In this document: in pieces, positions 6,012-61,416 of the stretch
Numbering within the stretch: the first letter of the stretch is position 1
Layout of the letters: every line of letters begins with the position of its first letter
NCBI GenBank assembly: GCA_029204225.1
Contig: CM055096.1
Span: forward strand, 38,621,866 to 38,685,865
DNA from: Diphasiastrum complanatum
Taxonomy: Eukaryota; Streptophyta; Lycopodiopsida; Lycopodiales; Lycopodiaceae
Reading direction: 5' to 3'
DNA: 64,000 nt
Notes under the pieces: model-generated
What the model saw: only the letters and a program-made list of their open reading frames with translations
What the model was told of the DNA's origin: nothing
The model's database searches: none
Program-made: the position numbers and the translations under genes

Positions 6012-6592
6012 TGTGCAAAAAGTACAAAAAGGACCAAGAGTGGATCCTAATTTGATCCTCAAGAGGGATTGGTTGTCAGATTACTTGATCTATTCAATCT
6101 ACTTGAGATTAAGATCAATCTAGATCAATTCTAGACACAAAATCCTAACAAGAACAATCATTAATTGAAGGTAGGTGTACTTTCTGGTTTCCCACGTGTG
6201 AAAACCTGTCTGCGTACGGACTCCAACCTGAAAATCAAGTACACATTGATATAACCTCAAAACAATCAAAACAAATGTAGACAAATGGAGAGAATCACTC
6301 AAAATTGCTTTCGAAACCAAGATTGGTGTCTCACAATGATTATGGCCAAATGTGGCACTATATATACAATAAGTGGGAGCTCGTGGTACTGATCATTCCT
6401 CTGATCCCCACATGTGTGAAGGTGCTTTGTCATATGATGATTCATCATGCAAAACTGACACTTGGACAAAACCTTCTATTTTGAGCACTTTTGGTCTATT
6501 TTCCTTCTATATGGAGATCTACTTGGAAATCTTCTAGAACTCAAAATTCGGCTACTTCAGCTTATTCCACATGTGTGAGTTGTCCTCTACAC
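6012..6592 (-). repeat. A1 3' LTR, outer part
   Basis: Matches the intact LTR at 9230-10051 from its first base to ...CTCTACAC, then switches at 6592/6593 to A-family leader sequence in the opposite orientation. Confidence 0.85.
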
Positions 6593-7720: not shown

Positions 7721-8406
7721 TTGAAGATGTTAAAATCTAGTCTCTTGAAAGTCACAAATTACATTTGTAGAATCATATCACAGGTTTTTATTCACATGGC
7801 ATCAATAGGTAGCAACCTATGGAAGGAAAGAAAGGATCCTAAGTGCAACCTTTGTGGCAAGGGAGGATATATTTTCTCAAGATGCTACAAAAAGAAGACC
7901 AATCCATCCAAGGAGTACCAAAGCAAGGGGCCGAGGTGAAGGATGGAACTGCAAGTTCAAAATGCAAATACAAGAAGGATAAGTCCAAGGAAAGGTGTTT
8001 CCTTTGTGGAAAGGTGAATGAGGCTTAGAGTCTCACAAGGACTTGCAAGATTTGTCTTCAAGAGTCCATCACAACACATGTTGAATCTTTTGGAATTTTT
8101 CATTTGGAAGTGCATTGTTTGGTTCAAGATGCAAAGATAGATGTCACTTTCATGAAAGTAACTTGGATTTATTTTATGTCCTTGGAAAGTATTTTGCTTG
8201 TAACTTTGGACAAGTTCAAACTTATCGTTATTATCCAAGAGAAATTAATCAAGAATAAGGAGCAATCACAAAATGAAAATAGTTTCATTTATGCTCTCAT
8301 GTCAACTTATGAAGAACCATTTTGCTTTGAAGAGATTTTTTTATCTCAAAGGTGGATTAAGGCAATACTAGTTGAGTGTGATGCCTTAAAAGATAGCAAA
8401 ATATGA
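7721..8406 (+). pseudogene. A-family gag/pol-relic ORF, truncated copy
   Basis: Homologous to the N-terminal half of the 658-codon frame at 42743-44719. An ATG at 7796 begins MASIGSNLW, followed by the zinc knuckle CNLCGKGGYIFSRC (the expected His is replaced by Tyr). After a frameshift near 7935 come the second CFLCGK motif, then NEA-stop-SLTRT (TGG to TAG), LEVHCLVQDAKIDVTFM, WIYFMSLES and the FCFEEIFLSQRWIKAILVE block. At about 8437 the frame joins 3' non-coding sequence (GCCAGCAAAGACC), removing about 1.26 kb present in A2 (30967-32222). Non-functional. Confidence 0.7.
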
Positions 8407-8534
8407 TTTCCTTGTAAGCTTACATTAGTTATGAAGTCAAGCCAGCAAAGACCAATTCAGCCCATGGAGTCAAGTTCAAGATCATCATGTTTTCCATCAA
8501 GCTAAATTTACCAAGCTAGATTTTTGAGGAGGAG

Positions 8535-8789
8535 TGTGAAAAATGCAAAAATAAGCTTGGTAGAGGCCAAAAATCTTGTATATAGATAAACACACATGTG
8601 TGGAGCCTGTTCCCACGTGTGAAACTAGTGTACTTGTGATGTACCATAATCATATAGGATGTACATATGATTTAATTCAAGTTCTAGTTGCTAAAAAGGT
8701 CAAAAACTAGTTTTCTAGACATATGACACATGGCATCAATCTATTGATTGCATGAGCCACATCCTTTGGTTAGGTGTCATATCCCATGT
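8535..8789 (+). repeat. A1 3' LTR, inverted inner part
   Basis: Begins TGTGAAAAATGC after the polypurine stretch GAGGAGGAG and runs to ATCCCATGT, exactly the portion of the LTR missing at 6592. It then joins minus-strand leader at 8789/8790 with about 1 nt of overlap. Confidence 0.8.
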
Positions 8790-9217
8790 CACTCCTTAAT
8801 CTATATTTTTGGCAAAATCTCTCTCAACTTCAACATACACTCAAAAAATCAGAGAAGATCAATTAATGCACCAAATTCAAGATTCAATTTTAATTTTTTG
8901 GCTGATCTAATCCAAGAAGTAATCAAGGGATTACATTCACTATAGGAAATGCTTGATTTTGCACCAAAAATCACTCAAATTGGGTATGTGAGTCAAATTC
9001 TACAAATTTTTGAAATTTCTCAATCAAAACCGGAGCTCTACGGCCTCACACGTGTGAAAAGGGTTCCTACAGCCCACAACAAGATCTCCAAAAAATTTTG
9101 AGGATAGCTATCAAATCCAACTCGCTACACAAAATTTGACTAGTTTCCAAAAAAACTGCTAATTTTGGCTTTGATTTGGATTAACCCTATCAATTTCAAC
9201 AAACATTCTTGTACTTG
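8790..9217 (-). other. A1 leader (5' UTR)
   Basis: Reverse complement of the A2 leader 28511-29110 in content (TTTGGCAAAATCTCTCTCAA and following, and a segment containing CACACGTGTGAAAAG). Confidence 0.75.
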
Positions 9218-9229
9218 GCTCTGATACCA
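9218..9229 (-). other. A1 primer binding site
   Basis: GCTCTGATACCA on the plus strand, next to the LTR start at 9230. It is the Met-tRNA-type copia primer site. Confidence 0.85.
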
Positions 9230-10051
9230 TGTGAAAAAAGTACAAAAAGGACCAAGAGTGGATCCTAATCCGATCCTCAAGAGGGATTGGTTGTCAGATT
9301 ACTTGATCTATCAATCTACTTGAGATTAAGATCAATCTAGATCAATTCTAGACACAAAATCCTAACAGGAACAATCATTTATTGAAGGTAGGTGTACTTT
9401 ATGGTTTCCCACGTGTGAAAACCTGACGGACTCCAACCTGAAAATCAAGTACACATTGATAGAACATCAAAACAATCAAAACAAATTAGACAAATGGAGA
9501 GAATCACTCAAAATTGCTTCCGAAACCAAGATTGGTGTCTCACAATGATTATGGCCAAATGTGGCTCTATATATACAATAAGTGGGAGCTCATGGTACTG
9601 ATCATCCCTCTGATCCCACATGTGTGAAGGTGCTTTGTCATATGATGATTCATCATGCAAAACTGACACTTGGACAAAACTTTCTATTTTGAGCACTTTT
9701 GGTCTATTTTTCTTCTATATGGAGATCTACTTGGAAATCTTCTAGAACTCAAAATTTGCCTACTTCAGCTTATTCCACATGTGTGAGTTGTCCTCTACAC
9801 ATGGGATATGACACCTAACCAAAGGATGTGGCTCGTGCAATCAATAGATTGATGCCATGTGTCATATGTCTAGAAAACTAGTTTTTGGCCTTTTTAGCCA
9901 CTAGAACTTGAATTAAATCATATGTACATCCTATATGATTATGGTACATCACAAGTACACTAGTTTCACACTTGGGAACAGGCTCCACACATGTGTGTTT
10001 ATCTATATACAAGATTTTTGGCCTCTACCAAGCTTATTTTTGCATTTTTCA
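9230..10051 (-). repeat. A1 5' LTR, 822 bp
   Basis: Runs TGTGAAAAAAGTAC to GCATTTTTCA. It contains a TATATATA box (near 9570, in reverse orientation), several CACGTGTG-like palindromes, and a terminal polyadenylation-like AT-rich end. It is followed by TAGGGTA. Confidence 0.85.
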
Positions 10052-27552: not shown

Positions 27553-27696
27553 TTTATTTAATTGTCATAGGAGGTTATTATCTCTCTTTTCTAGCTACCA
27601 TGTATCCAAGTAGGGTTCGGTAACTTGCTAGTGTTAGTAGCCAATACCCCTTCTAGTTAAGCTTATTGAACTATAGGGAAAGGAGCAAGAAAGGGG

Positions 27697-28497
27697 TGTG
27701 AAAAATGCAAAAATTATGCTTGGTCAAGGCCAAATCTATGTATATAGGATGATTACACATGTGTGGAGCCTGTTCCCACTTGTGAAATAAATGTACTTTT
27801 CATGTAGTACAATCATGTAGCTTGTACATATACTTTAAATCAAGTTCTATTGGCTAAAAAGGCCAAAATCATGTTTTTTAGGCATATGCCACATGGCATC
27901 AATCTAGACATTGCATGAAGCCACATCATGAGATTAGGTGTCAAATCCCATGTGTAGAGGTCTTCTCACACATGTGGAATAAGCTGAGGAAGTCGAATTT
28001 GCACTTCTAGAAGAGTCTTTTCCTAGTTCTCTACATAGAAGAAAAATGGACCAAAAGTGCTCAAAATAGAAGGTTTTGTCCAAGTGTCAATTTTGCAGAT
28101 GAATCATCACATGACAAAGCACCTCACACATGTGAGATCAGAGGGATGATCAGTACCACGAGCTCCCACTTTTTGTATATATAGAGCCACATTTGGCCAT
28201 AATCATTGGTTTTGGAGGCAATTCTTGTCAATTTCATCATTTGTCTTGATTTTTCTTGATAGTTTTGAGTTCCTATCATATTGTACTTTGATTTCAGGCT
28301 GGAGTCCGTACTCTGACAGGTTTTCACACGTGTGAAACCAGCAAGTACAATTCCCTTTCATTTATGATTGTTCTTGTTAGATTTTCTCATCTAAATTTGA
28401 TCTAGATTGATCTTAATCTTGTGTAGATTGATAGATATCATCCAATCACTCTTGTGGATCATTTTAGGATCCATTCTTGGTCCAACAGATCACCACA
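27697..28497 (+). repeat. A2 5' LTR, 801 bp
   Basis: TGTGAAAAATGC to ATCACCACA. It has a TATATATA box at 28176-28183 and palindromes of the CACACGTGTG type (near 28325). Confidence 0.85.
28176..28183 (+). promoter_or_regulatory. Putative TATA box of the A2 LTR promoter
   Basis: TATATATA in the context CCCACTTTTTG before and GAGCC after. It is conserved at the same place in A1, A3 (40739-40745) and the 50-kb LTR. Confidence 0.55.
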
Positions 28498-28510
28498 TGG
28501 TATCAGAGCC
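28498..28510 (+). other. A2 primer binding site
   Basis: TGGTATCAGAGCC directly after the LTR. Confidence 0.9.
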
Positions 28511-29849
28511 AAGTACAAGAGGATTTATGAAGATTTGATGGGGTTGATCCAAAACTAAGCCCAAATTAGCAAGTTTTTGGAAACTAGCTAATTTTGATGA
28601 GGCGAGTTGGATAGGATAGGTATACTCAAAATTTATGGACAAAAACTTGTTGTGGGCTAAAGGGGTACTTTTCACACATGCTAGAATGTACAGTACCAGT
28701 TTTGGAGCCTTATGTTTCAGTTTGATGCTAAATCTCCTAAATTAGCAAGTTTGTGGAAACTAGCTAATTTTGAGGTAGAGAGTTTGAATTGATAGCTAGA
28801 TTCAATTTTTTTGTACCAAAACTTGTTGTAGGCTGTACGTGTACCTTCCAAACGTGTGGGGGCCGTACTGAACCTGTTTTGGTTGAGAAAATTCAAATTG
28901 ATAAATAATTTGACTCATATTAGAGATTTTTAGTGCAAATTCAAGCTTTTTCTATAGAGATTCTATTGCTATGATTTGTTCTTGGATTGGATCATTCAAA
29001 TAATTTAATTTTAAGCTTGATTAAGGTGCATTAAATGTGTTTCTCTGATTTGAGTAAATGTCAATGTTGAGAGAGATATTGCCAAAAATCATAGATTAAG
29101 GAGTGATATGCAAGGTGAGAGGTTGAAATCCATTGTACCATCACTCTAGATTTGTTCAAGAGTGATAGGGTCAAGTTTAGAAGCATAAATTTTCTAGAAA
29201 ACATCTTTGGATCTGTCCTCTAAGTAAAACCTTTGAGAGTTTCTAGTGCATATATAGCATCTATGCAAATCTTTTGTAGAATTTGACATAGATTGGCTTC
29301 AATTGAGAGTTCTAGAAAAGAGATTGAGATCCAAGTCACATTGTTGAACCCTACTCAATTTGTTTGAGTGATTGTGAGGTTTGAAAAGTGTCATTAAGGT
29401 GTCTATGGCAAATGTGTAGAGAGAGATCCAATTTTCTAAGAGTTCCTTCCTTTGTAGAGGGCAAGATCTAGAAGCTCATTTTGTGTTGTTATTGGTGGAG
29501 AATTTGTCTTCTCCTAGGTGATCAAATCTTTCTAAGTGGCATTAGCTCTTTGAAGCACAATATGTTAGTGAGAAAGAAGAATCACAGCTTTTGATTTTGA
29601 ATTTCATTCCAACTCTTAAGAGGTAGAGTCATTGGTGGAATCCAATAGCGGTAAATGAATTCAATTTATTGAGCAAAATTTGACATAGTATGTATGAAAC
29701 TCAAATTGGTTCTATTCAACTTTCTTTGTGAGAGTGTGAGGGTCAAGTTGTGATCCCATTGGATGTCTAGAACAAGGAGGAGTCCATATTTGAGTGTTCA
29801 TACATGGTTGGGATCTTTGTGAATCTCTGTGTCTAATTTTTAAAGCTTG
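28511..29849 (+). other. A2 leader (5' UTR)
   Basis: Matches A1 (6593-7310 and, inverted, 8790-9217) and A3 (41107 onward). No conserved frame. Confidence 0.7.
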
Positions 29850-30341
29850 ATGTGTAAAATCCTTGTGTAAATCTGCAGTGTCGCCTGTGTAGTATCTTGT
29901 GTAAAACTACAGTGTCGCCTTTTATTGTCGCCTGTCATAAACTGCGAGGAAACATGCAGTGTCACATTTTTTGTCTTTTTCGACTGTCGAAAATTGCATG
30001 TTAAAATGCAGTGTCACATTTTGCCCTAATTGTCACATGTCAAAAACTGCATGTAAAACTGGAGTGTCGCCTTTTTCGCCTTTTTTTTGCAAAAAGTGTC
30101 ACTTTTCTGGAAGTTCCTAAAAATGGCCGAAAAACAACTTAGATAAGTGTCGCTAAACACTTAGTTGCAATTTAAGGTAAAAATAAACGACAATGTCGAG
30201 TGTCGGGTTTTTCGCCTGTGGAAAAACCCGAGTAACAATGCAGACTGTGTCGACAATTAGTTCAAATATGCAGATTGTTAGAAAACAGGTTAATTTTTTG
30301 TAGGTTGTATTTGAGAGAGTAAAAATCAGAGAAGGAAGAAG
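29850..30341 (+). repeat. Foreign block with reiterated CAGTGTCRC motif
   Basis: It replaces the part of the leader, and the ORF start codon, found in A1 and A3. A phrase like CTGCAGTGTCGCCTTTT recurs at about 29873, 29908, 29953, 30006 and 30059. The related motif at 13036-13052 suggests a dispersed family. It has no coding content. Confidence 0.5.
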
Positions 30342-30346
30342 CATCA

Positions 30347-32174
30347 ATAGGTGGCATCCTATTGAAGGCAAGTAAGGATCTTAAGTGCAACCTTTGTGGC
30401 AAGGGAGGATATGTTTCCTCAAGATGCTACAAAAAGAAGACCAATCCATCCAAGGACAACCAAAGCAAGGGGGGATGGAGCTTCAAGTTCGAAATGCAAA
30501 TACAAGTAGGACAAATCCAAGGAAAGGTGTCTTCTTTGTGGAAAGATGAATGAGACTTGGAGTCTCACAAGGACTTGCAAGATTTGTCTTCAAGAGTCCA
30601 TCACAACACATGTCAAACCTTTTGAAATTTTTTATTTGGAAGTGCATTGTTTGGTTCAAGATGCAAAAATAGATGTCACTTTCATGAAAGCAACTTGGAT
30701 TTATTTCATGTCCTTGGAGAGTAGTTTGCTTGGAACTTTGGATAAGTTCAAACTTATTGTTATTATCCAAGAGAAATCAATCAAGAATAAGGAGGAGCAA
30801 TCACAAAATGAAAATAGTTTCATTTATGCTCTCATGTCAACTTATGAAGATCTAATATGCTTTGAAGAGATTTTTTATCTCAAAGGTAGATTAAGGCAAT
30901 ACTAGTTGAGTGTGATGCCTTAAAAGATAGCAAAACATGTTTTCCTTGTAAACTTACATTAGATATGAAGTCAAGGAAATGGAAATGTCTTCATAATATA
31001 GATTCTTTTGGTTTCAATAAGATCATGAATGATGTGTTCATTCATAAAGATGAAAATTGTAAGTTTTCAATCTTAAAGGCAAGCTGTAAACTTCTTATGA
31101 GAATAAGTGAAGCATCCAAAGTGGACACTTATATCCATAAGCAAGTAATTAGCCTTATGGAAATGGAAATACCTTTTGATTTCAATATTAGAAAAATCAT
31201 GCCAAGTTGTGGTGATTTTTGGAGTTATGTTTCTAGCATAACTAATCTTGATAATCATAGGGAAGTGCATATTGTATGGTCATGGTTGTTATGATTATTA
31301 TGAGACATGGAGGTCTCGGATTTCCATCAAGAAGGAGCACCATGAAGAGGATCTTAAAGAGTCATCTCAAGGTTCAAGTGTGCCAAGGATTGAGGAGGAG
31401 AGACCTTCTCAAGTTGTGATTCCAAAAAGAAACCCAAGAAACATGGTTGAGCCCATGTGGCTCACATTTCAAGGGAAAGAGGAGCATATCTCATGTGGTA
31501 TACATCTCATACTTACTTCTCTTATGTCATTTGATGAATCAATTTGCTTTAGTGAGATCATTGCATCTCAAAATTGGAGTAAAGCCATACTAGTTGAGTA
31601 TGAAGTCTCTCTTGAGAACATAGATGATGTTCTTAAAAGTTTGAAAGTGATTTTAAATCAATTAGAAAGCAATTGGTTATTTCATCAAATGTATGTTCTT
31701 GAGTCATGTAAGAGCAAAAGTGATTTGTTCACTCATAGTTTGAAAAATTGTCTTTTTTTAAGTACTGAGGCAAATTGTAAACTCTTTATGAGAGTAAGTG
31801 AATCATCTTTTAAAGACACTTATCTCCATAATGAAGTATTTAGCCTCATTGGATCTGAGATTAGCATGGTAAACAAGCATGAAGATATGATGCAAACACT
31901 TTGTTATTATAGCATGCATAGCCTTGCCAATTTGGATGAGTCTAATTCTCCAGATCGTGGTAACATGATGTTAGATATTTGTGATCCTAATAAGTCAAGA
32001 AGACATCTTTATTTCCTCATGGAGGAGCATGCACATGAAGAAGGAGCAAGCCTCAAGGTCAATCATCTACATGAAATTTGGAAGGAATCAATTTTGGAGG
32101 TGCTAGGATGGTGCAAAGCTCTCAAGTTCATCAAAGATGTCAACATCAAAGAAGCACTATCATGGATATGGTGA
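30347..32174 (+). pseudogene. A2 relic gag/pol ORF, frameshifted
   Basis: Aligns along its length with the intact 658-codon frame of A3. Parts: ASIGGILLKASKD and the knuckle CNLCGKGGYVSSRC (His position is Tyr); shift; NETWSLTRTCKICLQES, LEVHCLVQDAKIDVTFM, WIYFMSLES, LDKFKLIVIIQEK; shift near 30895; SRKWKCLHN, LLMRISEASKVDTYIHKQV; shift near 31265; then a 308-codon frame to 32174 with VPRIEEERPSQVVIPKR, ICFSEIIASQNWSKAILVE, LFHQMYVLESCKSKSD, KLFMRVSESSFKDTYLHNE and VLGWCKALKFIKDVNIKEAL, ending SWIW. The ATG is lost because the foreign block joins at CATCAATAGG. At least three shifts make it non-functional, although long stretches remain open. Confidence 0.75.
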
Positions 32175-32314
32175 TTTCAGATCAACATCAAGCTCATTGG
32201 CTGATCTTCACATGACCTTTTGAACCAGCAAAGACCAATTCAGCCCATGGAGTCAAGTTCAAGATCATCATGTTTTTTATCAAGCTAGATTTACCAAGCT
32301 AGATTTTTGAGGAG

Positions 32315-32903
32315 TGTGAAAAATGCAAAAATTATGCTTGGTCAAGGACAAATCTATGTATATAGGATGATTACACATGTGTGGAGCCTGTTCCCACGTG
32401 TGAAATAAATGTACTTTTTATGTAGTACAATCATATAGCTTGTACATATAGTTTAAATCAAGTTCATATAGCTTGTACATAAAAGGCCAAAATCATGATT
32501 TTTAGGCATATGCCACATGGCATCAATCTAGAGATTGCATGAAGCCACATCATGAGATTAGGTGTCAAATCCCATGTGTAGAGGCCTTCTCACACGTGTA
32601 AAATAAGCTGAGGAAGTCAAATTTGCACTTCTAGAAGAGTTTTTTCCTAGTTCTCTACATAGAAGAAAAATGGACCAAAAGTGCTCAAAATAGAAGGTTT
32701 TGTCCAAGTGTCAATTTTGCATGATGAATCATCACATGACAAAGCACCCTCACACATGTGAGTTCAGAGGGATGATCAGTACCACGAGCTCCCACTTTTT
32801 GTATATATAGAGCCGCATTTGGCCATAATCATTAAGCAATACCAATCTTGGTTTTGGAGGCAATTCTTGTCAATTTCATCATTTGTCTTGATTTTTCTTG
32901 ATT
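32315..32903 (+). repeat. A2 3' LTR, truncated
   Basis: Starts TGTGAAAAATGC after GAGGAG and follows the 5' LTR to CTTGATTTTTCTTGAT, then diverges. Confidence 0.85.
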
Positions 32904-33560
32904 ATTCTTGCTTTCTCAACATACAACTGTTCCAATGCCTATTGACTCACAGGAGGCCACTTTATGTCATGAAATGAATGAGGCTAAGGACGAGCAGCCA
33001 GTAAATGAAGAAGAAGAAAGAACATTCTCGGCCTTGCAACAATTCTGAGTCATTTCAACAAACCAATGAAGAAAATGACAGATTGCTGAAAATCAGGAGC
33101 CTCTCTCCAATCATCATCAATGGTAGAGAGTACGTTTTTTTTTAATGATCTACAATAAATTCTCCATCTCTGAGAGGATGAACTGCTAAGTGCGTTGTTG
33201 AAATTGCAGAATGGACCAATACATACGATCACACAGTGATTGATGATACCTTTGAGAAGTTGTGTCCAACAGATGACGATGCCACATGTGAAATGGCATT
33301 GGCAAAAATCTTGATAGAACTCTGAAACGTCAGTCCCCCTCCTGAGATGACTCACCAAGATACAAAAGAATACGATTTCACTCAATTGGAGGGACAACAA
33401 GGAAGCATTAAATTGAGTGACACTGTAGAAGTCGATGAGGGGACACAAGACGCCATTGAAATCGATGCTTATGTAGCTAGAGCAAAGGAAGTGAGAAAAG
33501 CCAGGGAGAGTAACTCCAAGGATGCTTCCTTGGTGCACTGTACTTTTTAGAGTAGTACAT
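32904..33560 (+). other. Unrecognised coding-like stretch
   Basis: Plus-strand frame around 33347-33547 gives TKEYDFTQLEGQQGSIKLS, VEVDEGTQDAIEIDAYVAR, KEVRKARESNSKDAS and a stop. A preceding frame, before a stop near 33323, reads TYDHTVIDDTFEKLCPTDDD. Acidic and uninterrupted over about 65 codons, but not recognised. It could be a degraded exon. Confidence 0.3.
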
Positions 33561-40239: not shown

Positions 40240-40244
40240 GATAC
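40240..40244 (+). repeat. Target-site duplication GATAC (left)
   Basis: Identical to 45705-45709 on the other side of element A3. Confidence 0.9.
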
Positions 40245-41093
40245 TGTTAAAATTGGCAAAAGCTAACTTGATCATATCTTGTGAATACCATTATGAGTAG
40301 TACATATCATCATAAGACATGTGTGGAGCCTGTTTCCACGTGTGAAATAAATGCATTTATCATTTAGATGAGTCATATAGGTTGTACATACCATTTCATT
40401 TGAGATCTAGTGGCTAAAATGGCCAAAATCTAGTTTTCTAGCTATACCACTTGGCATCATTTTATTGGTAGGAAAAGCAATTTCACATGGATAGGAGTGA
40501 TCTCACACGTGCTAAGGACTACTCACATGTGTGAAAACATCAGTAGTAGGTGAGATCCAACTTGTAGTAGATACTTGTGCAAGTCCCTATAAATTAGGAA
40601 AATTGCCTAAAATCAAGGGAGGTGGCTATAAGTTAGGAAACTTGGTCCATGTGCCATATTGATGATTATTGGTGGATCCTTTGATGAGTAGGCACTCTCA
40701 CACGTGCCAAATCATCTGAGTAAGCATCAGCTCTTATGTATATATGGTGGCTCATTTGGCCATAATTGATATGGGAGCTAAATCTTGGTTTTGGAGCAAT
40801 TCTAGTGTTTTCTCTCTATTTGTCTTGTGTTTTTTTTGCATTGGTTGGGTTCTAAGCTTAGTATACTTTATTCTCAGCCTAATTTCCGTACTCTGACAGG
40901 TTTTCACACGTGTGAAACCAGAAAGTACAAGTTTTGATCAATAATGATTGTTCTTGTTAGATTTATTCATCTAGATTTGATCTAAATGCTATCTAATCTT
41001 GTGTAGATTGATAGGTTGATCTAATCTAACATCCAATCACACTTGTGGATATGATTCAGATCTATTCTTGGTCCATTTTGCTGTACTTTGCCA
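40245..41093 (+). repeat. A3 5' LTR, 849 bp
   Basis: TGTTAAAATTGG to TACTTTGCCA. TATATAT at 40739-40745. Palindrome TTTCACACGTGTGAAA near 40901-40916 and several other ACGTG cores. Confidence 0.92.
40739..40745 (+). promoter_or_regulatory. Putative TATA box of the A3 LTR promoter
   Basis: TATATAT in the same relative position as TATATATA in A2. The 3' LTR has the same box near 45351. Confidence 0.55.
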
Positions 41094-41106
41094 TGGTATC
41101 AGAGCC
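41094..41106 (+). other. A3 primer binding site
   Basis: TGGTATCAGAGCC directly after the LTR. Confidence 0.92.
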
Positions 41107-42742
41107 AAGTACAAGTGCATTTAGGGCATTGATCTAAACTATACCCAAATTGGCAGGTTTCTGGAAACAAGCTAATATTGAGGTAGTGAGGTTGAATGGA
41201 TAGCTAGAACCATCATATTTGTACAAAATCTTGTTGTGGGCTCCAGGTGTACTTTCCACACGTGTGTGGCCATACAGGACCTTTTTTTGACAGTAAAATT
41301 CAGTTTGGTGCATTTTGAGCTTCATACACCCAATTTTGAGTCAATTTAGTGCATTTTTCAAGCTTTCACTTGCATTGTTTCTATTCCATTGATTTGTTCT
41401 TGGTTTAGATCAATCATATAGATGGATTAATGCTTGTTTACAGTACATTGAAGTTGATTCTCTGATTTTTTGAGTGTACATTGAAGTTGAGAGAGAAAGA
41501 GTGCTATAAACCAAAGATTAAGAGATTTGTTCAAGAGTGAAAGGGCCGAGTCTAGAAGCATCTAAATGCTAGAAGACACTCTTGGATCAGTCCTCCAAGT
41601 GAAATATTAGTGAATTTCTAAAGCAAAAACACTCATAAAGGCAAAATCTACCTATGTGATAAGAATTGTTGGCAAGTACTAGGAGAAAAATTTAAGATCC
41701 AAATCACATTGTTCACCCCTACTCAAGTGTGTGAGTGTGTTTTTTGGCTTGAATTAAAGTCATAAAGGTGAGTGGCATATGTGTGTTGATCCAAAATTTC
41801 CAAGAGATCCTTCCTTTGTAGAGGGCAAGAACTACTAACTCAATTCTTGACTTTGGTGGAAAATTTGTCTTCTTCATTGTGATCAAATCTTGCTAAGTGG
41901 CATTAGCTCTTTGTAAGCACATCTTAGTGAGAGAGAAGTATCACATTTCTGGAAATTTGAATTTCATTCCAACTCTAAAGAGGTAGAGTCAATGGTACTT
42001 GGCGGAGTCCAATAGGGGTGAATGAATTCAATTTTTTGAGCAAAATTTTGACATTATATGTATGAAACTCAAATAAGTTCTATTCAACTTTCTTTGTGAG
42101 AGTGTGAGGGTCAAGTTGTGATCCCATTGGGAGTCTAGAACATGGAGGAGTCCATAATTGAGTGTTCATGCATGGTTGGGATCTTTGTGAATCTCTAGAT
42201 GTCTAAATTTTAAGCTTGGTGAAAAATTATTGACATAGATTGTTATCAAACCATTTCATGTCCATTCCGAATCTCAAGAGTGAGATTCTTTGGGTCAAGA
42301 GGAATCTCAAAAGGGGTGATTGGATCTGATCTTTGTGTGTTTGAATCAAGTATACATGTCAAGTTTTTGTGATCTAGTGTAGATCCTTTTTTGTGAAAAT
42401 TAGTGGTTTAATTTGTTGTCAAATCAAATCAAATTCAATCCAAATCTCAAGAGTGAGATTATTTGGGTCAAAAGTGGATCCAAAAGGAGTGACTAAGTTT
42501 CATTTTCAAGTATTTGAACCAAAACCCATACTTTGTTCAAGAATCTCAAAAGTTGAGAGAACTAGTCAAGAGAAAAGGAAATTCTAGGTGTCAAATCTTT
42601 TCAAATCCATTCCAACTCTCAAGAGGAATATTCATTGGTATTTGTTGAGTCCAATAGGGGTGTTTGGATCTGATTTTTGTGATTTGATAGAGTGCGTGAT
42701 CAAAACAAAGATTAGTTTCCAATTGAGTAGGTTGAAAGAGAT
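41107..42742 (+). other. A3 leader (5' UTR)
   Basis: 1.6 kb without a conserved frame, homologous to the A1 and A2 leaders. It has repeated phrases such as CTCAAGAGTGAGATT and GAGTCCAATAGGGGTG at several sites, suggesting internal duplication. Confidence 0.7.
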
Positions 42743-44719
42743 ATGATTCAAAATTTGTGGTCTAGATCTTGTGTAGATCCTTCTAGATTGTTGAATGTGT
42801 TCAAATCTAGTTTCTTGAGAGTCACAAATTACATTTTGAAAAGTCATATCACTAGGTTTTACTTCCTCATCATGGCATCAATAGGTGGCAACCTATTGGA
42901 GGCAAGTAAGGATCCTAAATGCAACCTTTGTGGCAAGAGAGATCATTTTGTCTCAAGATGCTACAAAATGAAGACCAATCCATCCAAGGAGAACCAAAGC
43001 AAGGGGGCCGAGGTGAAGGATGGAGCTTCAAGTTCAAAGTGCAAAGGCAAGAAGGACAAATCCAAGGAAAGGTGTTTCCTTTGTGGAAAGATGCATGAGG
43101 CTTGGAGTCTCACAAGGACTTACAAGATTTGTCTTCAAAAGTCCATCATCACACATTTCAAACCTTTTGAAGTTTTGCATTTGGAAGTGAATTTTTTGGT
43201 TCAAGATGCAAAGATAAATGTCACTTTCATTAATGTCACTTGGATTTATTTCATGTCCTTGGAAAGCATTTTGCTTAGAACTTTGGAAAAGTTCAAATTT
43301 ATTGTTATGATCCAAGAGAAACCAAGAAAGATTAAGGAGGAGCAATCACAAAATGAAAAAGGTTTCATTTATGCTCTCATGAAATCTTATGAAGGACTAT
43401 TTTGCTTTGAAGAGATTTTTGTATCTCAAAGGTGGATTAAGGCAATACTAGTTGAGTGTGATGCCTTAATAGATAGGAAAGCATGTTTTCCTTGTAAAAT
43501 TACATTGAGTATGAAGTCAAGGAAATGGAAATGTATTCATAATGTATTTTTTGTTGGTTTCAATAAGATCATGAATGATGTGTTCATTCATAATGTTGAA
43601 GATTGTAAATTTTCAATTTTAAAGACAAGTTGTAAACTTCTTATGAGAATAAGTGAAGCATCCAAAGTGGACACTTATATCCATAAGCAAGTAGTTAGCC
43701 TTATTGAGATGGAAATAGTTCTTGATTTCAATATTAGAAAAATCATGCCAAGTTGTGGTGATTTTTGGACTTATGTTTCTAGCACAAGTAATGTTGATGA
43801 TCATATGAAGTGCACAATATATGATTATGTTTGTTGTGATCATTTTGAGACATGGAGGTCTTGGATTTCCATCAAGGAGGAGCACCAAGAAGTTGATCTT
43901 GAGGAGTCATCCCAAGGTTCAAGTGTGCCAAGGATTGAGGAGGAGAGTCCTTCTCAAGTTATGATTCCAAGAAGAATATCAAGAGACATGGTTGAGCTCA
44001 TATGGCTCACATTTCAAGGGAAAGAGGAGCACATTTCAAGTAGTATACATCTCATGCTTGTTTCTCTTATGTCATTTGGTGAATCAATTTGCTTTAGTGA
44101 GACTTTTGCATCTCAAAGTTGGAGTAAAGCAATACTAGTTGAGTATGGTGTCTCTCTTGAGAACATAGTTGATGTTCTTAATGATATGAAATTGATTTTA
44201 GATCAATTAGAAATCAAATGGTTATTTCATCAAATGTATGTTCTTGAGTCTTGCAAGAGCAAGAGTGAGTTGTCTACTCATAGTATGAAAAATTGTCTTT
44301 TTTCATGTATTGAGGCAAATTGTAAACTCTTTATGAGAGAAAGTGAATCATCCTCTAAGGAAACTTATCTCCATAATGCAGTATCTAGCCTCATTAGATC
44401 TGAGATTAGCATGGTAACCAAGCATGAAGATATGATACAAACTCTTTGTTATTATAGCATGCATAGTCTTGCCAATGTTGATGAGCCTAATCCTCGAGAT
44501 CTTGGTAACATGATGTTGGATCTTTGTGATCCTCATGAGTCAAGAAGGACTCTTTATTTTATCATGGAGTTGCAGCTATTTTCAAGGAGGAGGAGCTTTT
44601 GGATCAACCATATGCTTCAAGGATGGAACAAATCAATGAAAGAGGTGCTAGGATGGTGCAAAGCTCTCAAGTTCATCAAAAAAGTCAACATCAAAGAGGC
44701 ACTATCATGGATATGGTGA
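42743..44719 (+). CDS. 658-codon gag/pol-relic protein of A3
   Basis: An open frame with no stop. The start may be 42743 or the Met at 42872 (MASIGG), which is shared with A1. Residues 60-73 are a full zinc knuckle, CNLCGKRDHFVSRC; 111-114 a half knuckle, CFLC. Residues 146-190 resemble the beginning of integrase (LEVNFLVQ, WIYFMSLES) but lack the DDYSR acidic motif. From about 209 to 325 and 436 to 555 there are two collinear copies of one module (for example ICFSETFASQSWSKAILVE against FCFEEIFVSQRWIKAILVE, and CKLFMRESESSSKETYLH against CKLLMRISEASKVDTYIH), offset by 229-230 residues. Each module looks like the start of copia RT: WLFHQMYV stands where HQMDV would be, with Asp replaced by Tyr. 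YVDD is absent. Ends KEALSWIW. It may bind RNA like Gag. Function is otherwise unknown. Confidence 0.8.
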   Translation: MIQNLWSRSCVDPSRLLNVFKSSFLRVTNYILKSHITRFYFLIMASIGGNLLEASKDPKCNLCGKRDHFVSRCYKMKTNPSKENQSKGAEVKDGASSSKCKGKKDKSKERCFLCGKMHEAWSLTRTYKICLQKSIITHFKPFEVLHLEVNFLVQDAKINVTFINVTWIYFMSLESILLRTLEKFKFIVMIQEKPRKIKEEQSQNEKGFIYALMKSYEGLFCFEEIFVSQRWIKAILVECDALIDRKACFPCKITLSMKSRKWKCIHNVFFVGFNKIMNDVFIHNVEDCKFSILKTSCKLLMRISEASKVDTYIHKQVVSLIEMEIVLDFNIRKIMPSCGDFWTYVSSTSNVDDHMKCTIYDYVCCDHFETWRSWISIKEEHQEVDLEESSQGSSVPRIEEESPSQVMIPRRISRDMVELIWLTFQGKEEHISSSIHLMLVSLMSFGESICFSETFASQSWSKAILVEYGVSLENIVDVLNDMKLILDQLEIKWLFHQMYVLESCKSKSELSTHSMKNCLFSCIEANCKLFMRESESSSKETYLHNAVSSLIRSEISMVTKHEDMIQTLCYYSMHSLANVDEPNPRDLGNMMLDLCDPHESRRTLYFIMELQLFSRRRSFWINHMLQGWNKSMKEVLGWCKALKFIKKVNIKEALSWIW

Positions 44720-44841
44720 TTTCGGATCGACATCAAGCTCATTGGCTGATCTTCACACCTTTGAACTAGCAAGGATCCATATTAGAAGACCAATTCAGCC
44801 CATGGAGTCAATCTCAATATCATCATGTTTTTATCAAGTTA

Positions 44842-44852
44842 GTTTTGAGGAG
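44842..44852 (+). other. A3 polypurine tract
   Basis: GTTTTGAGGAG immediately before the 3' LTR. The same TTTTGAGGAG precedes the LTR in A2 and in the 50-kb element. Confidence 0.75.
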
Positions 44853-45704
44853 TGTTAAAATTGGCAAAAGCTAACTTGATCATATCTTGTGAATACCATT
44901 ATGAGGAGTACATATCATCATAAGACATGTGTGGAGCCTGTTTCCACGTGTGAAATAAATGCATTTATCATTTAGATGAGTCATATAGGTTGTACATACC
45001 ATTTCATTTGAGATCTAGTGGCTAAAATGGCCAAAATCTAGTTTTCTAGCTATATGCCACCTGGCATCATTTTATTGGTAGGAAAAGCAATTTCACATGG
45101 ATAGGAGTGATCTCACACGTGCTAAGGACTACTCACATGTGTGCAAACATCAGTAGTAGGTGAGATCCAACTTGTAGTAGATACTTGTGCAAGTCCCTAT
45201 AAATTAGGAAAATTGCCTAAAATCAAGGGAGGTGGCTATAAGTTAGGAAACTTGGTCCATGTGCCATATTGATGATTATCGGTGGATCCTTTGATGAGTA
45301 GGCACTCTCACACGTGCCAAATCAGCTGAGTAAGCATCAGCTCTTGTGTATATATGGTGGCTCATTTGGCCATAATTGATATGGAAGCTAAATCTTGGTT
45401 TTGGAGCAATTCTAGTGTTTTCTCTCTATTTGTCTTGTGTTTTTATGCATTGATTGGGTTCTAAGCTTAGTATACTTTATTCTCAGCCTACTGTCTGTAC
45501 TCTGACAGGTTTTCACACGTGTGAAACCAGCAAGTACAAGTTTTGATCAATAATGATTGTTCTTGATAGATTTATTCATCTAGATTTGATCTAAATGTTA
45601 TCTAATCTTGTGTAGATTGATAGGTTGATCTAATCTAACATCCAATCACACTTGTGGATCTGATTCAGATCTATTCTTGGTCCATTTTGCTGTGTACTTT
45701 GACA
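44853..45704 (+). repeat. A3 3' LTR, 852 bp
   Basis: TGTTAAAATTGG to TACTTTGACA, matching the 5' LTR throughout. Confidence 0.92.
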
Positions 45705-45709
45705 GATAC
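45705..45709 (+). repeat. Target-site duplication GATAC (right)
   Basis: Matches 40240-40244. Confidence 0.9.
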
Positions 45710-50439: not shown

Positions 50440-51270
50440 TGTAGAAACCTGCAAAATATGACCAAGAATGGATCCTAATCTGATCCACAAGAGGGATTGG
50501 ATGTTAGATACAATTGATTTATCAATCTACACAAGATTTAGATCAATCTAGATCAATTCTAGGCATGAAAAATCAAAAAGAACAATCATTAATGAAGGTA
50601 AATGTACTTGCTGGTTTCACACGTGTGAAAACCTGTCAGAGTACAGACTTCAACCTGAAAACAAAGTACATTATGATAGAAACTCAAAACATTCAAAACA
50701 AATGAAGACAAATGGAGAGATTGACACAAAATTGCTTCCAAAATCAAGATTGATGTATCATATAGATTATGACCAAATATTTCTCTATATATACACTTCT
50801 TGGAGCTCGAGGTACTGAGCATGCATCAGATCTCACACATGTGAGAATGCTTTGTCATATGGTGAATCATCATGCAAAATTGACAGTTGGATCAAACTTT
50901 CTATTTTGAGCATTTTTGGTCCAATTTTCTACTATATGGAGATCTACTTGGAAATCTTTTAGAAGTCAAAACTCGCCTACTTCAACTTATTCCACACGTG
51001 TGAGCTATCCTCTATACATGAGATGTGACACCTAACCAAAGGATGTGGCTCATGCAATCAATAGATTGATGCCATGTGTCATATGTCTAGAATACTGGTT
51101 TTTGGCCTTTTTAGCCACTAGAGCTCGAATTAATCATATGTACAACCTCTATGATTATGGTACATGACAAGTACAGTACTTTTACACATGGGAACAGGCT
51201 CCACACATGTGTAATCATCCTATATACATGATTTTGGCCTTGACCAAGCATAATTTTTGCATTTTTCACA
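50440..51270 (-). repeat. A-type 3' LTR, 831 bp
   Basis: TGTAGAAACCTGC to GCATTTTTCACA, with the same motif order as A1-A3, including a CACACGTGTGAAAAC palindrome near 50620. Followed by CTCCTCAAAA, the polypurine tract in reverse (51271-51280). Confidence 0.85.
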
Positions 51271-51282
51271 CTCCTCAAAATC

Positions 51283-52302
51283 CTAGCTTGGTAAATCTAG
51301 CGTAGATCTATCTATAGCTCCAAGAGCCAATCTTAATTTTACAAATGGATCTTTAGACAATGCCTTGGTGAGTATATCAGCAATGCAATCTGATGATGAA
51401 ACATGAATAAGCTTGATCTCTTTTGCTTGCACTTTCTCCCTCATGAAATGATGTGAAATCTCAATGTGCTTTGTTCGAGCATGGAAGATTGGATTGTTTG
51501 CAAGTTGTTGAGCTGCTTGATTGTCACAATATATGCATGAAATGTCTTCATTCTTGATCACATTAAGCTCCTCCAAAAGCCTTTTCATCCAAAGAACCTC
51601 CTTTGTTGTTGTTGTCATAGCTTTATACTCGGATTCTGTTGATGAAAGAGAGATGGTATCTTTCTCTTTGGAAAGCCAAGATATAGCTCCTCCACATAAG
51701 AATTTAGCAAATGCACTTATGGATCTTCTATCCATCTTGTCACCTGCAAAACTTGAGTCTGAATATGCTCTTAAACAAATATTAGTCCTTTCATAAACTA
51801 GGACAAAGTCTTTTATAGCCAAGATGTACCTTAACACCCTTTTTGCTCCTTTCCAATAACATATTAATGGACTTTGCATGTATTGACTCAATTTGCCAAC
51901 ACAAAAGCTAAGATCTGGTCTAGTGATGGTTAAGTATATCAAGGAACCAATAAGCATTCTATAGGTAGTGATGTCCTCAAAGGATGCTTCATCACTTTCC
52001 TTAGAAACTTTTACACTTAGTTCCATTGGAGTTTCAACTCCTTTACAATCAATCATGCCAAATTTTGCTGAGATTGATCTAGCATACTTAGATTGACATA
52101 TGAAAGTAAAATCATTACTTCTAGTGACTTCTATTCCAAGTATAACTTTAAGAAGTCCTAGATCTACCATCCTAAATTCACTAGACAAGGAAACTTTTAC
52201 ATCTTTGATGCCATCTAGATCATTTCCTGTGAGTATAATGTCATCAACATATAAAACTGAGCTAATGATCTTTCCATCATTACATTGTAGTACAATGATG
52301 GT
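51283..52302 (-). pseudogene. A-type RT C-terminus and RNase H
   Basis: From right: [18 protein letters not shown], then shifted [180 protein letters not shown], then stop at 51283. YVDD and the RNase H motifs are intact over 301 codons. The RT N-terminal half (fingers, first catalytic Asp) is missing: integrase joins directly to GLKQAP near 52360. Its last codons and polypurine tract match the ends of the non-autonomous A elements. Confidence 0.88.
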
Positions 52303-52974
52303 TCATAAGAACTTACAACAAATCCAATGTAGATAAGATAGGAATGCAACCTGGAGTACCATGCTCTTGGTGCTTGCTTGAGTCCATAAAGACTCTTCCT
52401 TTTTCCTTGTTTCTAAAGGAATATGTACATAACAAGTACATCCAAAAACTTTCAAATCACTAAGATTTGGCTTTTTGCCATACAATACTTCATAAGGTGT
52501 AAGTCCTTTAATGGCACTATCAGTAATTCTATTACCTAGAAAGTTTGCACATAAAATAGCTTCTCCCCAAAATGAAATAGGAAGGGATGCATCTAATCTC
52601 AAAGCTTTAGCACACTCACATAGTGTCCTATTCTTTCTCTCAGCTACTCCATTTTGTTGTGGAGTATATGTGCAACAAAACTCTCTTTTAATGCCATTAC
52701 TTTCACAAAACTCTTTCATCCTATTGGAGATGTACTCCCCTCCATTATCACTTCTTACTACTTTCAAGCTAGTATTGAGTTGCTTTTCCACAAGAGTTTT
52801 GAGCTTTACAAAGGACTCAAAAAGATCACTTTTCTTAGACAAGAGATAAACCCAAGAGTATCTTGATCTATCATCAATAAAAGTGAGATACATAAGAGCT
52901 CCACCAGTTGATTCATGTGAAAATGAATGAACATCCAAGTGTATCAGGTCAAGAGGAGAGTTAGATCTTGTCAA
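52303..52974 (-). pseudogene. A-type integrase core
   Basis: [122 protein letters not shown]. All three acidic residues of the DDE site are present in one open frame. After ETRKKE the sequence fuses out of frame to RT, a deletion of several hundred codons. It would catalyse insertion of cDNA. Confidence 0.88.
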
Positions 52975-52977
52975 AAA

Positions 52978-54262
52978 TCTCTAGAAATGTAGCTTATGAG
53001 ATTTGGAGAGTCCACAAGCTTCACAAAGCTTGCCACACTTGGATATGGTTTTGGGAAGTCCACTTGCTAGCTCCTTTGTCACCATGGTCTCCATAGCTTT
53101 GTAGTTAGGATGGCCTAACCTTTTGTGCCATAATTCCACTTGAGTGAGCTCCTCCCTTGCCATGTTGACACTTCCAACCATCACATTAGCATCCAATTTG
53201 AATAATCTCCCTTGCTTGAAACCACTAGCAGCACATTTTTCATCTTTCAAGATAGAACATGCTCCATGATTGAAATGTACATCTAATCCACTATCCATAA
53301 GTTGTCCTACACTCAACAAGTTCTTTGTAATTGAAGGTACATAAAGAACATTGTCTAGATCTACTTCTTTAGATGATCCTAGACATAAAGGAATGGATCC
53401 AGCACCTACAATCTCACATTCTTGATCACTTGCAGTGAAGATAAATCTCTTAGAACTATTGTAAGAAAGCAGATTAGAAAAGTAGTCTTTTTGGTGAGTC
53501 ATGTGAGAGCTTGCCCCACTATCAATCCACCAAGTGTCTTGATTAGATGTTTGTGTTGAGGATACCATCAAAGATAGATTGCACTCTTCCTCCTCCTCCT
53601 CAAGCACAAGATTGCCTTGATTGTCCTTCTCTTGGGCATTCTTCTTCTTGTAGCACTCGGATGCAAAATGTCTCTTTTTTCCACAAAAGAAACAGTTCAG
53701 CTTCTTCTTGTCCTTTTTGCTCTTGCCTTTGGAACTTGATGCTCCATCTTTGTTCTCCATCTCCATGTCTTGAGTCTTCTTGGATAGAAACTTTTTCTTT
53801 TTTCCTTTCAAGGAAAAGTTAGCTTTTTCATCACCATCATTCAAAGATAAGGAACTCATCCTACTTTTGATATGAATCATTCTACTCTCCTCACTTACAA
53901 ACACACTTTGAAGTTTTTCAATACTAGGAAGTGAATCTTGAATAGAAAAGGTTTGAACAAGATTGGAATAATGATCTCCTAATCCATTCAAAATGATTTG
54001 AACTAACTCATCATCTTTGATTTTATCATCTATAGAAGACAACTCCTTATTCAAAGATTTGATCCTAAAGACATAATTTTGGGCACTTTCACTACTTCCT
54101 TTCATGATTTGAAGGATTTGATTCCTAAGCATGAGTATCCTTGAAGTATTCTTGGATCCATAAATTGCTTTTAATGAATCGCATGCCTCTTTGGATGTAG
54201 TACAAGATGAGATTTCCTTCAAAAGTTCATTACTTACATCCATTTTATGCAATGTAATGCAA
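52978..54262 (-). pseudogene. gag: A-type gag, zinc knuckle, protease, pre-integrase
   Basis: A 432-codon open frame. Its first residues fall in the C-type LTR, so the real element sequence begins at about 54262 (LHKMDVSNELLKEIS). Gag core: CTTSKEACDSLKAIYGSKN, RILMLRNQILQIMKG, DDELVQIILNGLGDHYSNL. Knuckle CFFCGKKRHFASEC (C-x2-C-x4-H-x4-C). Protease DTWWIDSGASSHMTHQ. Pre-integrase LWHKRLGHPNYKAMETM and CEACGLSKSH, then a stop just before integrase. The segment KDGASSSKGKSKKDK before the knuckle resembles KDGASSSKCKGKKDK in the A3 ORF, linking the two. The Gag N-terminal third is missing. Confidence 0.88.
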
Positions 54263-54900
54263 TGTGAAGGTTTTAGCATGTGTGAACTTCACCACACACC
54301 CTACAGGATCTTACTAAGGTATTGTGATTGCACAAGATTGATCAAAGAACAGTATGCTTGAAAAATCTAAGGCAAGAGCACAATGGCATACATCAGATGA
54401 AAAAATCTAACTCTTCACTATGAGAAAATAAATGTCAGAAATAATTCTAAGTGTTTAGTATGGGAAAAAGAGGCTGCTCTCAAGTAGAGAGAGAAAATCA
54501 AGCATAGAAAACTTGGGTAGAGAGAGAATGAGTCCAAAACACCAAAATCTCAATATTTACAATGTGGCAAAACATGCCCAGCTTTTCCTACATGAGAGAG
54601 ACTTGAATTCCTACAGTGGAGTTGCATGGAAAGTCCACTTAACTGAACTAATTCACCTACCAGAGATCCACATGTGTAACTGCATGCATGTATGTTGCAT
54701 GTACTACATGTCAACTCATAAAACTGCCTAGACATGTGTAGATCACTTAAACTACTTTGCATGTTGCATGCACTGATTGCATGTGGCTTGCATGCATACA
54801 TTAAGACTTTGCATGCTATCTAAACATTTGCATGTCATCATAATTGAACCTATCTAACTCAAATCCGAGCTACACTAGAAGGATATGTGCACAATTCACA
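54263..54900 (-). repeat. C-type LTR, 638 bp, minus strand
   Basis: TGTGAAGGTTTTAGCATG to CAATTCACA. Reverse match to 11125-11714. A polypurine tract lies on its right (CTCCTTTTA, 54901-54909), marking it as a 3' LTR of a minus-strand C element whose body is lost. Confidence 0.78.
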
Positions 54901-60083: not shown

Positions 60084-60370
60084 TGGCGGGCTATGCATCC
60101 TGCTAATGCTTGTTCTTCATCTCAGCCTATCCAAGCACATGCCATCCAACGATATGAAGAACAACCATCTCAATCTGGACATTCCTCACATTATCACTAA
60201 TATCCACCAGGAAGTCCAGAACCACTAGCCATACAAGATGGCTATGCCATTACGCAAGGACCATTGAACAACAAATGTTTCATCTGTGGTGAAACCGGCC
60301 ACTTCATGGTTGATTGTCCAGTCAAGACCAAGTACCACACCGAGGGTCCCGACTGTGTCAGAAAATATAG
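60084..60370 (+). pseudogene. Zinc-knuckle fragment of another gag
   Basis: QAHAIQRYEEQPSQSGHSSH, then NNKCFICGETGHFMVDCPVK with a perfect C-x2-C-x4-H-x4-C at about 60276-60317. It is followed at about 60370 by a Gag body that should precede a knuckle, so this piece belongs to a different element, possibly gypsy. No protease follows in its frame. Confidence 0.6.
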
Positions 60371-60842
60371 TTTCAACCCAAGTAAGATCCTACCTGCCTG
60401 CGAAAGCCTGCCCTCTACATATGAGAACTGGGTGATGATCATCATGACACACTCAGATTTAACTCTTACTAGAATTATCACTATGTTGCTACAAGAAGAT
60501 AATCGAAGAAGTCAAGACACTTCGTCTACCTCTTCGTCTCATGCTTTGTATGTCAACAAGGGCTCGAAACGACAAAAGCTGAAAAAGCTCCAAGCAGTCT
60601 ACATTGAATCAAAAATAGACTCAAGGTCAAGAACAATCATCGAATCCACATTCGTCAAAGAAGAAGATGTTTTGCAAGTATTACAAATGCAACATGAGAT
60701 CCAAGATTGCCGAATTCTCAAAGCGAAGAATGCAGCCAAGCAACCTGATCAACAAGAAAATATAGTTACAACATCTCCTGAAGTCGAGATGGACAAAGGC
60801 GCTTTTATGGTCAAAGACAAATACGTGGTTTCTGGATTCTAG
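60371..60842 (+). pseudogene. gag: B-family gag C-terminal part
   Basis: LPSTYENWVMIIMTHSDLTL, TRIITMLLQEDNRRSQDTSS, TSSSHALYVNKGSKRQKLKK, SRSRTIIESTFVKEE, and a shifted, destroyed knuckle region near 60650-60700. It matches the minus-strand gag at 10451-10700. The upstream Gag core is missing. The frame runs through to 60842 in a shifted phase. Confidence 0.7.
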
Positions 60843-61416
60843 AGCTACTCAGCATATGACCATTCATCGCGAGATTTGTCAATCATATACGCCTTACAAC
60901 ACGAAGAAGTATGTTCATCTTAGTGACGATATCACTCACGCTATCGAAGGTGAAGGTATTGTAAGATTAAGATTCCATCATGATCAATTCAAACTACTGT
61001 CGAAAGTCTTGTATGTTCCTAAACTATCTACAAATTTGTTATCAGTAAGTAGAATCACAGATTTAGGTCATAGGGTGGATTTTGAATCTGACCAATGCAG
61101 AATTATTAATAGGAGTAATAAGATCCTTGCACTCGGCAAGAGGCATGGATACTTATATAGATTGGCACATTGTTATTCTGATTCTAGTCAAGCTTTGACA
61201 ACCTCTGTTCTTGTCAATAAAGCATTCTTATGGCATCATCGCTTAGGACGCTTGAATTATGCATTTGCTTCGAACATGTCCAGACAATCCCTAGTACTTG
61301 ATCTCGACAATCTTCTGGTGAAGTTGATTTCCCTGTTTGCCATAGCTGCATCTTTGGAAAACAGACTAGGATTTCTTTTAGATCGAGTTATAGACATGCA
61401 ACAAGAGGTCTGTTAG
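60815..61416 (+). pseudogene. B-family protease and pre-integrase
   Basis: WFLDSRATQHMTIHREICQS: the active-site DSG reads DSR. Then KKYVHLSDDITHAIEGEG, LLSKVLYVPKLSTNLLSVSR, ITDLGHRVDFESDQCRIINR, GKRHGYLYRLAHCYSD and AFLWHHRLGRLNYAF. A frameshift near 61330 breaks the zinc-binding region (CHSCIFGKQTR readable in the other frame). The Gly-to-Arg change would abolish protease activity. Confidence 0.8.

What the first reader, a model, noticed from the sequence alone, without database searches (positions are those of the whole stretch)
42743..44719. Intact 658-codon ORF in a non-autonomous copia element, built from a duplicated RT-like module
The frame is fully open in the youngest A element, yet every catalytic motif expected of copia pol is absent. 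It keeps one perfect zinc knuckle. Two modules offset by 229-230 residues align without gaps over about 120 residues (SQRWIKAILVE against SQSWSKAILVE; CKLLMRISEASKVDTYIH against CKLFMRESESSSKETYLH). Each begins like the N-terminal edge of RVT_2, and the second has HQMYV where RT has HQMDV. A long catalytically dead frame kept open in a mobile element suggests selection for a non-enzymatic role, such as RNA packaging or parasitism of a partner.
Basis: partly seen in the sequence, partly recalled or inferred. Interest (0 to 1): 0.8.

Follow-up and report, generated by a model that had tools for sequence, protein, structure and literature searches.

The report
Open frame kept, protein sequence not
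A jumping element that has lost all its enzymes still carries a 2-kb reading frame derived from them; related copies keep that frame free of stops and frameshifts while its amino acids drift as if unselected, so what is maintained may be the act of being translated, not a particular protein.

Summary
The 658-codon ORF is real. It lies in a non-autonomous copia LTR element (40245-45704). No catalytic domain was detected. It is a collapsed copia polyprotein, colinear with an autonomous copia family present in the same window: zinc-knuckle region, N-terminal part of integrase, then the N-terminal edge of reverse transcriptase twice.

The frame is kept open in relatives. Six A/B copies against a young C copy (last ~400 codons): 155-168 substitutions, no stop (9.4-9.8 expected), indels only in multiples of three. 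A against B: no stop (6.0 expected), two indels of 9 nt, while the adjacent, equally diverged leader has nine indels, none a multiple of three. Yet N/S relative to a mutation-matched null is 0.85-1.13 (A/B-C) and 1.78 (A-B), and replacements are no more conservative than random; copia elements E-F give 0.22.

Best guess: in-cis selection for uninterrupted translation (RNA surveillance or RNA fate); inferred. A fast-diversifying protein is the main rival. Some sub-tests are weak.

The parts
40240..40244 (.). Target-site duplication GATAC, left copy
   Evidence: read
40245..41093 (+). 5' LTR (TG...CA)
   Evidence: 97.5% identical to the 3' LTR over 850 columns; ends read
41094..41106 (+). Primer binding site TGGTATCAGAGCC, complementary to initiator-Met tRNA (assignment recalled)
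   Evidence: read
41094..42742 (+). Leader, depleted of upstream ATG (16 against 38.2 in shuffles; antisense CAT not depleted)
41844..44694 (+). Core cassette shared by subfamilies A and B, whose LTRs differ (A-B 90-99% in 150-nt steps inside; 79-86% in the 750 nt before it, 76% in the tail after it)
42743..44719 (+). The 658-codon ORF: collapsed copia polyprotein
42920..42961 (+). Zinc knuckle, residues 60-73, CX2CX4HX4C in this copy
43106..43390 (+). Residues 122-216: remnant of the N-terminal part of integrase
   Evidence: tblastn 5e-7 against L058; residues 121-215 score 97 against a maximum of 58 in 1000 shuffles
43406..43483 (+). Residues 222-247, start of module 1: N-terminal edge of RVT_2
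   Evidence: tblastn 0.007, 4 of 1000 shuffles as good; same partner DNA as module 2
43940..44239 (+). Residues 400-499: integrase-RT linker plus start of module 2 (RVT_2 N-edge)
   Evidence: tblastn 4e-8; residues 385-560 score 100 against a maximum of 66 in 1000 shuffles
44853..45704 (+). 3' LTR
45705..45709 (.). Target-site duplication GATAC, right copy
   Evidence: read
50440..54288 (-). Copy of the autonomous-type copia family P1 (gag to integrase, RT end, 3' LTR about 50440-51300); candidate helper family; this copy lacks part of RT, and no 5' LTR was found by the LTR search up to 55600

Best explanation
The element is a non-autonomous copia retrotransposon, presumably moved by enzymes of autonomous relatives. 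Its ORF is the collapsed remnant of a copia Gag-Pol reading frame (knuckle region, integrase N-part, RT N-edge, the last duplicated). Shown: the frame stayed open between subfamilies while the amino acids drifted without detectable constraint. Inferred: selection acts in cis on the RNA. A transcript whose main frame is translated uninterrupted to near the 3' LTR escapes surveillance (nonsense-mediated or RDR6-type decay) or is otherwise better routed to packaging, so copies with an early stop leave fewer progeny, whatever protein is made.
For: Six A/B copies (WIN, L011, L021, L036, L049, L046) against young C copy L059, last 395-400 codons: 155-168 substitutions, 0 stops against 9.4-9.8 expected (P <= 0.00025), indels of 3, 6, 9 or 12 nt only. 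Without a hypervariable block near the C-terminus (five of the six): 0 stops against 6.2-6.8, P 0.0005-0.002. A-B (WIN-L049): 0 stops against 6.0, P 0.001. Control of equal divergence, WIN-L049: leader part of the core, 888 nt, 46 substitutions (5.2%), 9 indels, 0 of 9 multiples of three; ORF to 44690, 1930 nt, 108 substitutions (5.6%), 2 indels, both 9 nt. N/S relative to a mutation-matched null 0.85-1.13 (A/B-C) and 1.78 (A-B), against 0.22 for pieces of copia elements E-F and 0.59 for P1-L058 integrase; BLOSUM of replacements equals the null here but is above it in both controls. Codon positions diverge alike, 43:45:39. In 27 A copies, shared variants hold 1 stop against 7.6 expected, P 0.003. 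Leader ATGs are depleted in A and B, antisense CAT is not. No stop in 26 of 67 A matches, 67 of 68 B matches, and 76 of 129 C matches over the C-terminal half; counted by hand, duplicated places included, lists ranked by protein score. Kinship to family P1.
Against: The RNA-surveillance step is inferred; no transcripts were available. In the 13 A copies found by DNA similarity (window copy included) shared stops are 1 against 3.5, P 0.12; in all 27, stops shared versus private differ only at Fisher P 0.09; private stops are themselves low (18 against 25.6, P 0.07); and control frame +2 also runs low (3 against 7.3, P 0.056; 0 against 3.0 in variants of 4 or more copies, P 0.04). One stop, codon 490, occurs in three copies. 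ATG-creating changes in the leader are not purged among shared variants (3 of 50 against 15 of 189). Excess replacement changes in A (P 0.009) and A-B (P 0.027) are not expected from frame-only selection. L059 was chosen because the table showed it open, and it covers only the last 400 codons.
Confidence: 0.5

Rival explanations
1. The product is a functional protein whose sequence is mostly free or under diversifying selection: an RNA-binding or capsid-associated adaptor, or an interfering decoy, with only bulk properties or a few residues constrained.
For: Excess of replacement changes among shared A variants (N105 S19 against 87.3/30.1, P 0.009; shared against private N/S Fisher P 0.016) and A-B (N92 S16 against 77.8/24.1, P 0.027). 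Replacements unevenly spread (variance/mean 2.3-2.9; control E-F RT 1.1). The first 120 codons hold only 3 of 49 fixed A-B differences. Cys60 and Cys73 invariant in 31 of 31 insertions; pI 8.5.
Against: No excess in A-C (omega/null 0.98-1.13 for four A copies, 0.85-0.87 for two B copies); replacement types random; position 68 of the knuckle altered in 12 of 31; the leader next to the conserved start is about equally conserved; no confident fold, though from a shallow alignment.
Confidence: 0.3
2. No selection on the frame: openness is inherited from a recently active ancestor and copies were picked for being open.
For: N/S at the null; protein-ranked searches favour open copies; individual A copies often carry private stops; the DNA-ascertained subset alone is not significant.
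Against: The A-B indel contrast with the adjacent leader uses a B subfamily found by DNA similarity; 13% divergence from C without a stop.
Confidence: 0.1
3. The protein was conserved until lately and constraint was lost only recently, so residual openness reflects old constraint.
For: Ancestry from a constrained polyprotein.
Against: A-B and A-C span different divergences and neither shows N/S significantly below the null.
Confidence: 0.1

Closest known systems
[quoted passage not shown] passages of PMC8704663 seen)
   Same: Non-autonomous LTR element with a single ORF, presumed to be moved by autonomous relatives
   Different: No gag domain detected here; only a knuckle region, fused to integrase and RT remnants
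BARE-2 type elements (BARE1/BARE2 mentioned in a passage of PMC8704663; details recalled)
   Same: Copia non-autonomous element thought to depend on a relative with similar LTRs
   Different: BARE-2 is recalled as losing gag expression with pol recognisable; here no catalytic domain is detectable
LARD (recalled; the name was a search term)
   Same: Non-autonomous LTR element without enzymes
   Different: LTRs under 1 kb here, and a long maintained ORF
Additional ORFs (aORFs) of LTR elements (passage of PMC12786077)
   Same: Long ORF of unclear function in an LTR element
   Different: aORFs are additional to gag and pol; this one descends from gag-pol
Sirevirus gag/pol (PMC9073684: abstract, Results and vN/vS method section read)
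   Same: Copia genes tested within one genome by variant frequency
   Different: There vN/vS falls with frequency, averaging 0.15 in the top classes; here N/S is higher among shared than among private variants

Membership tests
Ty1/copia LTR retrotransposon (non-autonomous) | Two LTRs with TG..CA ends, 5-bp TSD, initiator-Met PBS | tested here: met
   (tRNA assignment recalled)
Ty1/copia LTR retrotransposon (non-autonomous) | Copia order NC - integrase - RT | tested here: met
   colinear remnants against family P1
Ty1/copia LTR retrotransposon (autonomous) | Recognisable protease, integrase, RT and RNase H | tested here: not met
   no Pfam domain; only N-terminal parts of integrase and RT align
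TR-GAG | ORF encodes a GAG domain | tested here: not met
   no gag family at E<=10; only 59 residues precede the knuckle
LARD | Non-coding internal domain with very long LTRs (recalled) | tested here: not met
   658-codon ORF; LTR about 850 nt
RVT_2 reverse transcriptase | Full domain with catalytic aspartates | tested here: not met
Element mobilised in trans by a relative with matching LTRs | Autonomous family with similar LTR in the genome | tested here: inconclusive
   P1 LTR against A LTR 70% locally (809 columns), 66% over the whole alignment; against older window copies C 80% and D 90%; no autonomous copy with an A- or B-type LTR was seen or systematically sought
Element mobilised in trans by a relative with matching LTRs | Transcription and transposition by that helper | not testable with these tools
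   no transcripts

The most novel reading that the evidence does not exclude
Frame-only selection: a mobile element keeps a 2-kb reading frame open across subfamilies because being translated through is what pays, while the protein itself is evolutionarily free. The ORF would be a 'placeholder' that passes the host's RNA quality control, and the same core cassette is carried in different LTR backbones.
Probability: 0.45. Interest if true: 0.8.

Novelty: new variant of a known kind. Interest (0 to 1): 0.62.

Why it matters
An open frame is usually taken as evidence of a useful protein. This family offers a case, testable inside one genome with thousands of first-look candidates, where an open frame and a conserved protein come apart. 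If true it suggests how non-autonomous elements survive RNA surveillance without coding for anything specific, and warns against calling a protein function, or gene birth, from an intact ORF alone. It also bears on cis-preference in retrotransposons: a cis RNA effect would select each copy's own frame even though the enzymes come from elsewhere.

Tried and rejected
Structure prediction on 11 family proteins gave mean pLDDT 29.7, so no fold search was run. A scan of viral contigs found no relative. Classical pairwise dN/dS alone is hard to read, since its neutral baseline need not be 1; a mutation-type-matched null and shifted frames were used. That the ORF is more conserved than its surroundings, first taken as purifying selection, was rejected: the leader inside the core is as conserved. 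The mostly 3n private indels of A copies (12 of 15 in the ORF, 5 of 28 in the leader) were not used as evidence, because the protein-ranked search favours them. Earlier versions of the shared-variant test included L043; it was dropped because it shares flanks with L039, one duplicated insertion with a +2 frameshift. A splice donor in the leader was considered and left open: the string is present in 18 of 42 fetched copies and was not found in the B copy or the C copy scanned. Eight paper searches showed no report of this pattern in the titles and abstract starts listed; only three papers were opened. One paper was not held.

Full report
What is there. The ORF at 42743-44719 is 658 codons long and intact. 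It lies in an LTR element with LTRs at 40245-41093 and 44853-45704 (97.5% identical), a GATAC duplication on both sides and a PBS matching initiator-Met tRNA (read; tRNA assignment recalled). The window is part of a 1.74-Gb genome without a name in these tools; that it is a plant is my inference.

Ancestry. Pfam finds no domain at its cut-off. An autonomous-type copia family, P1, has one copy at 50440-54288 (-) of the window; the integrase-RT part of a second copy was fetched as L058. Against them the ORF is colinear: knuckle region (blastp 2e-5; 71% DNA identity over 111 nt), residues 122-216 with the N-terminal part of integrase (tblastn 5e-7), residues 222-247 with the start of RT (0.007), and residues 400-499 with the integrase-RT linker and the same start of RT (4e-8) (E-values are for this one short subject sequence). 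Residues 331-385 and 560-658 show no similarity to L058 beyond shuffles. Both modules also hit the same 41-51 nt of partner DNA, each at E 9e-4, so they look like two copies of one RT-edge segment. The ungapped self-comparison singles out offsets 229 and 230. LTRs tie the family to P1 as well: local identity 70% (A, 809 columns), 80% (older window copy C, 620) and 90% (older window copy D, 263).

Subfamilies. A (window type) and B share a core of leader plus ORF, but their LTRs are only 65% alike over the whole alignment (local pieces 83% over 269 and 71% over 322 columns), with identity steps near 41844 and 44694. The core thus sits in different LTR backbones, by recombination or by very unequal rates. 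B is a recent burst: LTR parts 99.7-100% identical in the three copies looked at; 67 of 68 matches without a stop, 34 of the 68 with one identical score. C: 129 matches listed from 26,101 first-look candidates; 76 without a stop over the matched C-terminal half; 16 of these stand in open frames of 640-648 aa, five of the 16 with one identical score and so probably duplicates (counted by hand).

The frame is kept. WIN against B copy L049: 108 substitutions in 652 codons, no stop where the null expects 6.0 (P 0.001). In the leader part of the core, with nearly the same substitution rate (5.2% against 5.6%), there are nine indels, none a multiple of three; in the ORF two, both 9 nt. By my arithmetic the chance that all nine frame-breaking indels fall in the leader is about 3e-5. 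Six A or B copies against the young C copy L059: 155-168 substitutions in 395-400 codons, no internal stop against 9.4-9.8 expected, and indels of 3, 6, 9 and 12 nt only, alignment ends left out. Leaving out a hypervariable block near the C-terminus changes nothing (five copies). L059 was chosen as an open copy, which is a bias, and covers only about the last 400 codons; for the part before, only the older C copy of the window was compared (NG86 dN/dS 1.06, 1.22 and 0.87 in three pieces).

The protein is not kept. Substitutions fall evenly on codon positions and omega is like that of shifted frames. With a null that places each observed substitution type at random codons, omega/null is 0.85-1.13 (A/B-C) and 1.78 (A-B); the mean BLOSUM of replacements is not significantly above the null in any of these. 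The same test on pieces of copia elements E (14.6-17.7 kb) and F (56.2-59.9 kb), 380 codons, gives 0.22 and strongly conservative replacements, and on two P1 copies (integrase, 193 codons) 0.59 and conservative replacements. The knuckle's position 68 is not His in 12 of 31 insertions.

Within subfamily A, 27 insertions were kept of 37 A sequences (10 dropped as duplicates by identity or shared flanks). Private variants: N311 S108 X18 against 312.5/98.8/25.6 expected; shared: N105 S19 X1 against 87.3/30.1/7.6. Fisher tests of shared against private give P 0.016 for N/S and 0.09 for stops. Control frame +1 is near expectation for shared stops (7 against 7.9) and has somewhat more silent changes than expected (38 against 29.8); frame +2 has 3 stops against 7.3 (P 0.056). 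Of the 27, 13 (window copy included) were in the DNA search; there the trend is the same but not significant (S P 0.07, X P 0.12). In maize Sireviruses the published ratio falls with frequency, to an average of 0.15 in the top classes (PMC9073684, Results read).

Translation. The leader has 16 ATGs where shuffles expect 38.2, the B leader 17 against 38.0, the older C leader 32 against 40.4; the antisense triplet is not depleted. The last ATG before the ORF lies at 42356, about 380 nt upstream. This fits a leader that is scanned to the ORF. Against it, new ATGs are not purged among shared variants.

Mechanism. Shown: ancestry, frame retention between subfamilies, lack of detectable amino-acid constraint. 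Inferred: the advantage of an open frame acts on the RNA itself, for example by avoiding nonsense-mediated or RDR6-type decay. Ribosome stalling that sends retrotransposon RNA into SGS3/RDR6 silencing is described in a review passage (PMC12786077). The excess of replacement changes within A and between A and B, and the few fixed A-B differences in the first 120 codons (3 of 49), leave room for a fast-diversifying protein.

Noticed in passing
window 6012-10051 and 27692-32905: Older copies (D, C) of the same core with LTRs closer to the autonomous-type P1 family than to the A LTR: the core occurs in different LTR backbones.
   Followed up: partly
L046, L049, L057: Very young burst of subfamily B with near-identical LTR parts and an open ORF; 34 of 68 listed matches share one identical score.
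   Followed up: partly
window 44540-44660 against L059: Hypervariable block near the C-terminus (about residues 600-640) between A and C with a 12-nt indel; perhaps a compensated frameshift.
   Followed up: partly
ORF codon 490 in L032, L034, L044: Same codon is a stop in three A copies that are not each other's nearest relatives; recurrent mutation or exchange.
   Followed up: no
window 42240-42687: Leader holds imperfect direct repeats, for example 42240-42319 and 42413-42492.
   Followed up: no
window 60201-61416: Another copia-like gag/protease fragment with an intact-looking zinc knuckle.
   Followed up: no
window 8537-8789 and 9799-10051: 98% inverted repeat, 253 nt, overlapping LTR matches in opposite orientation.
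   Followed up: no
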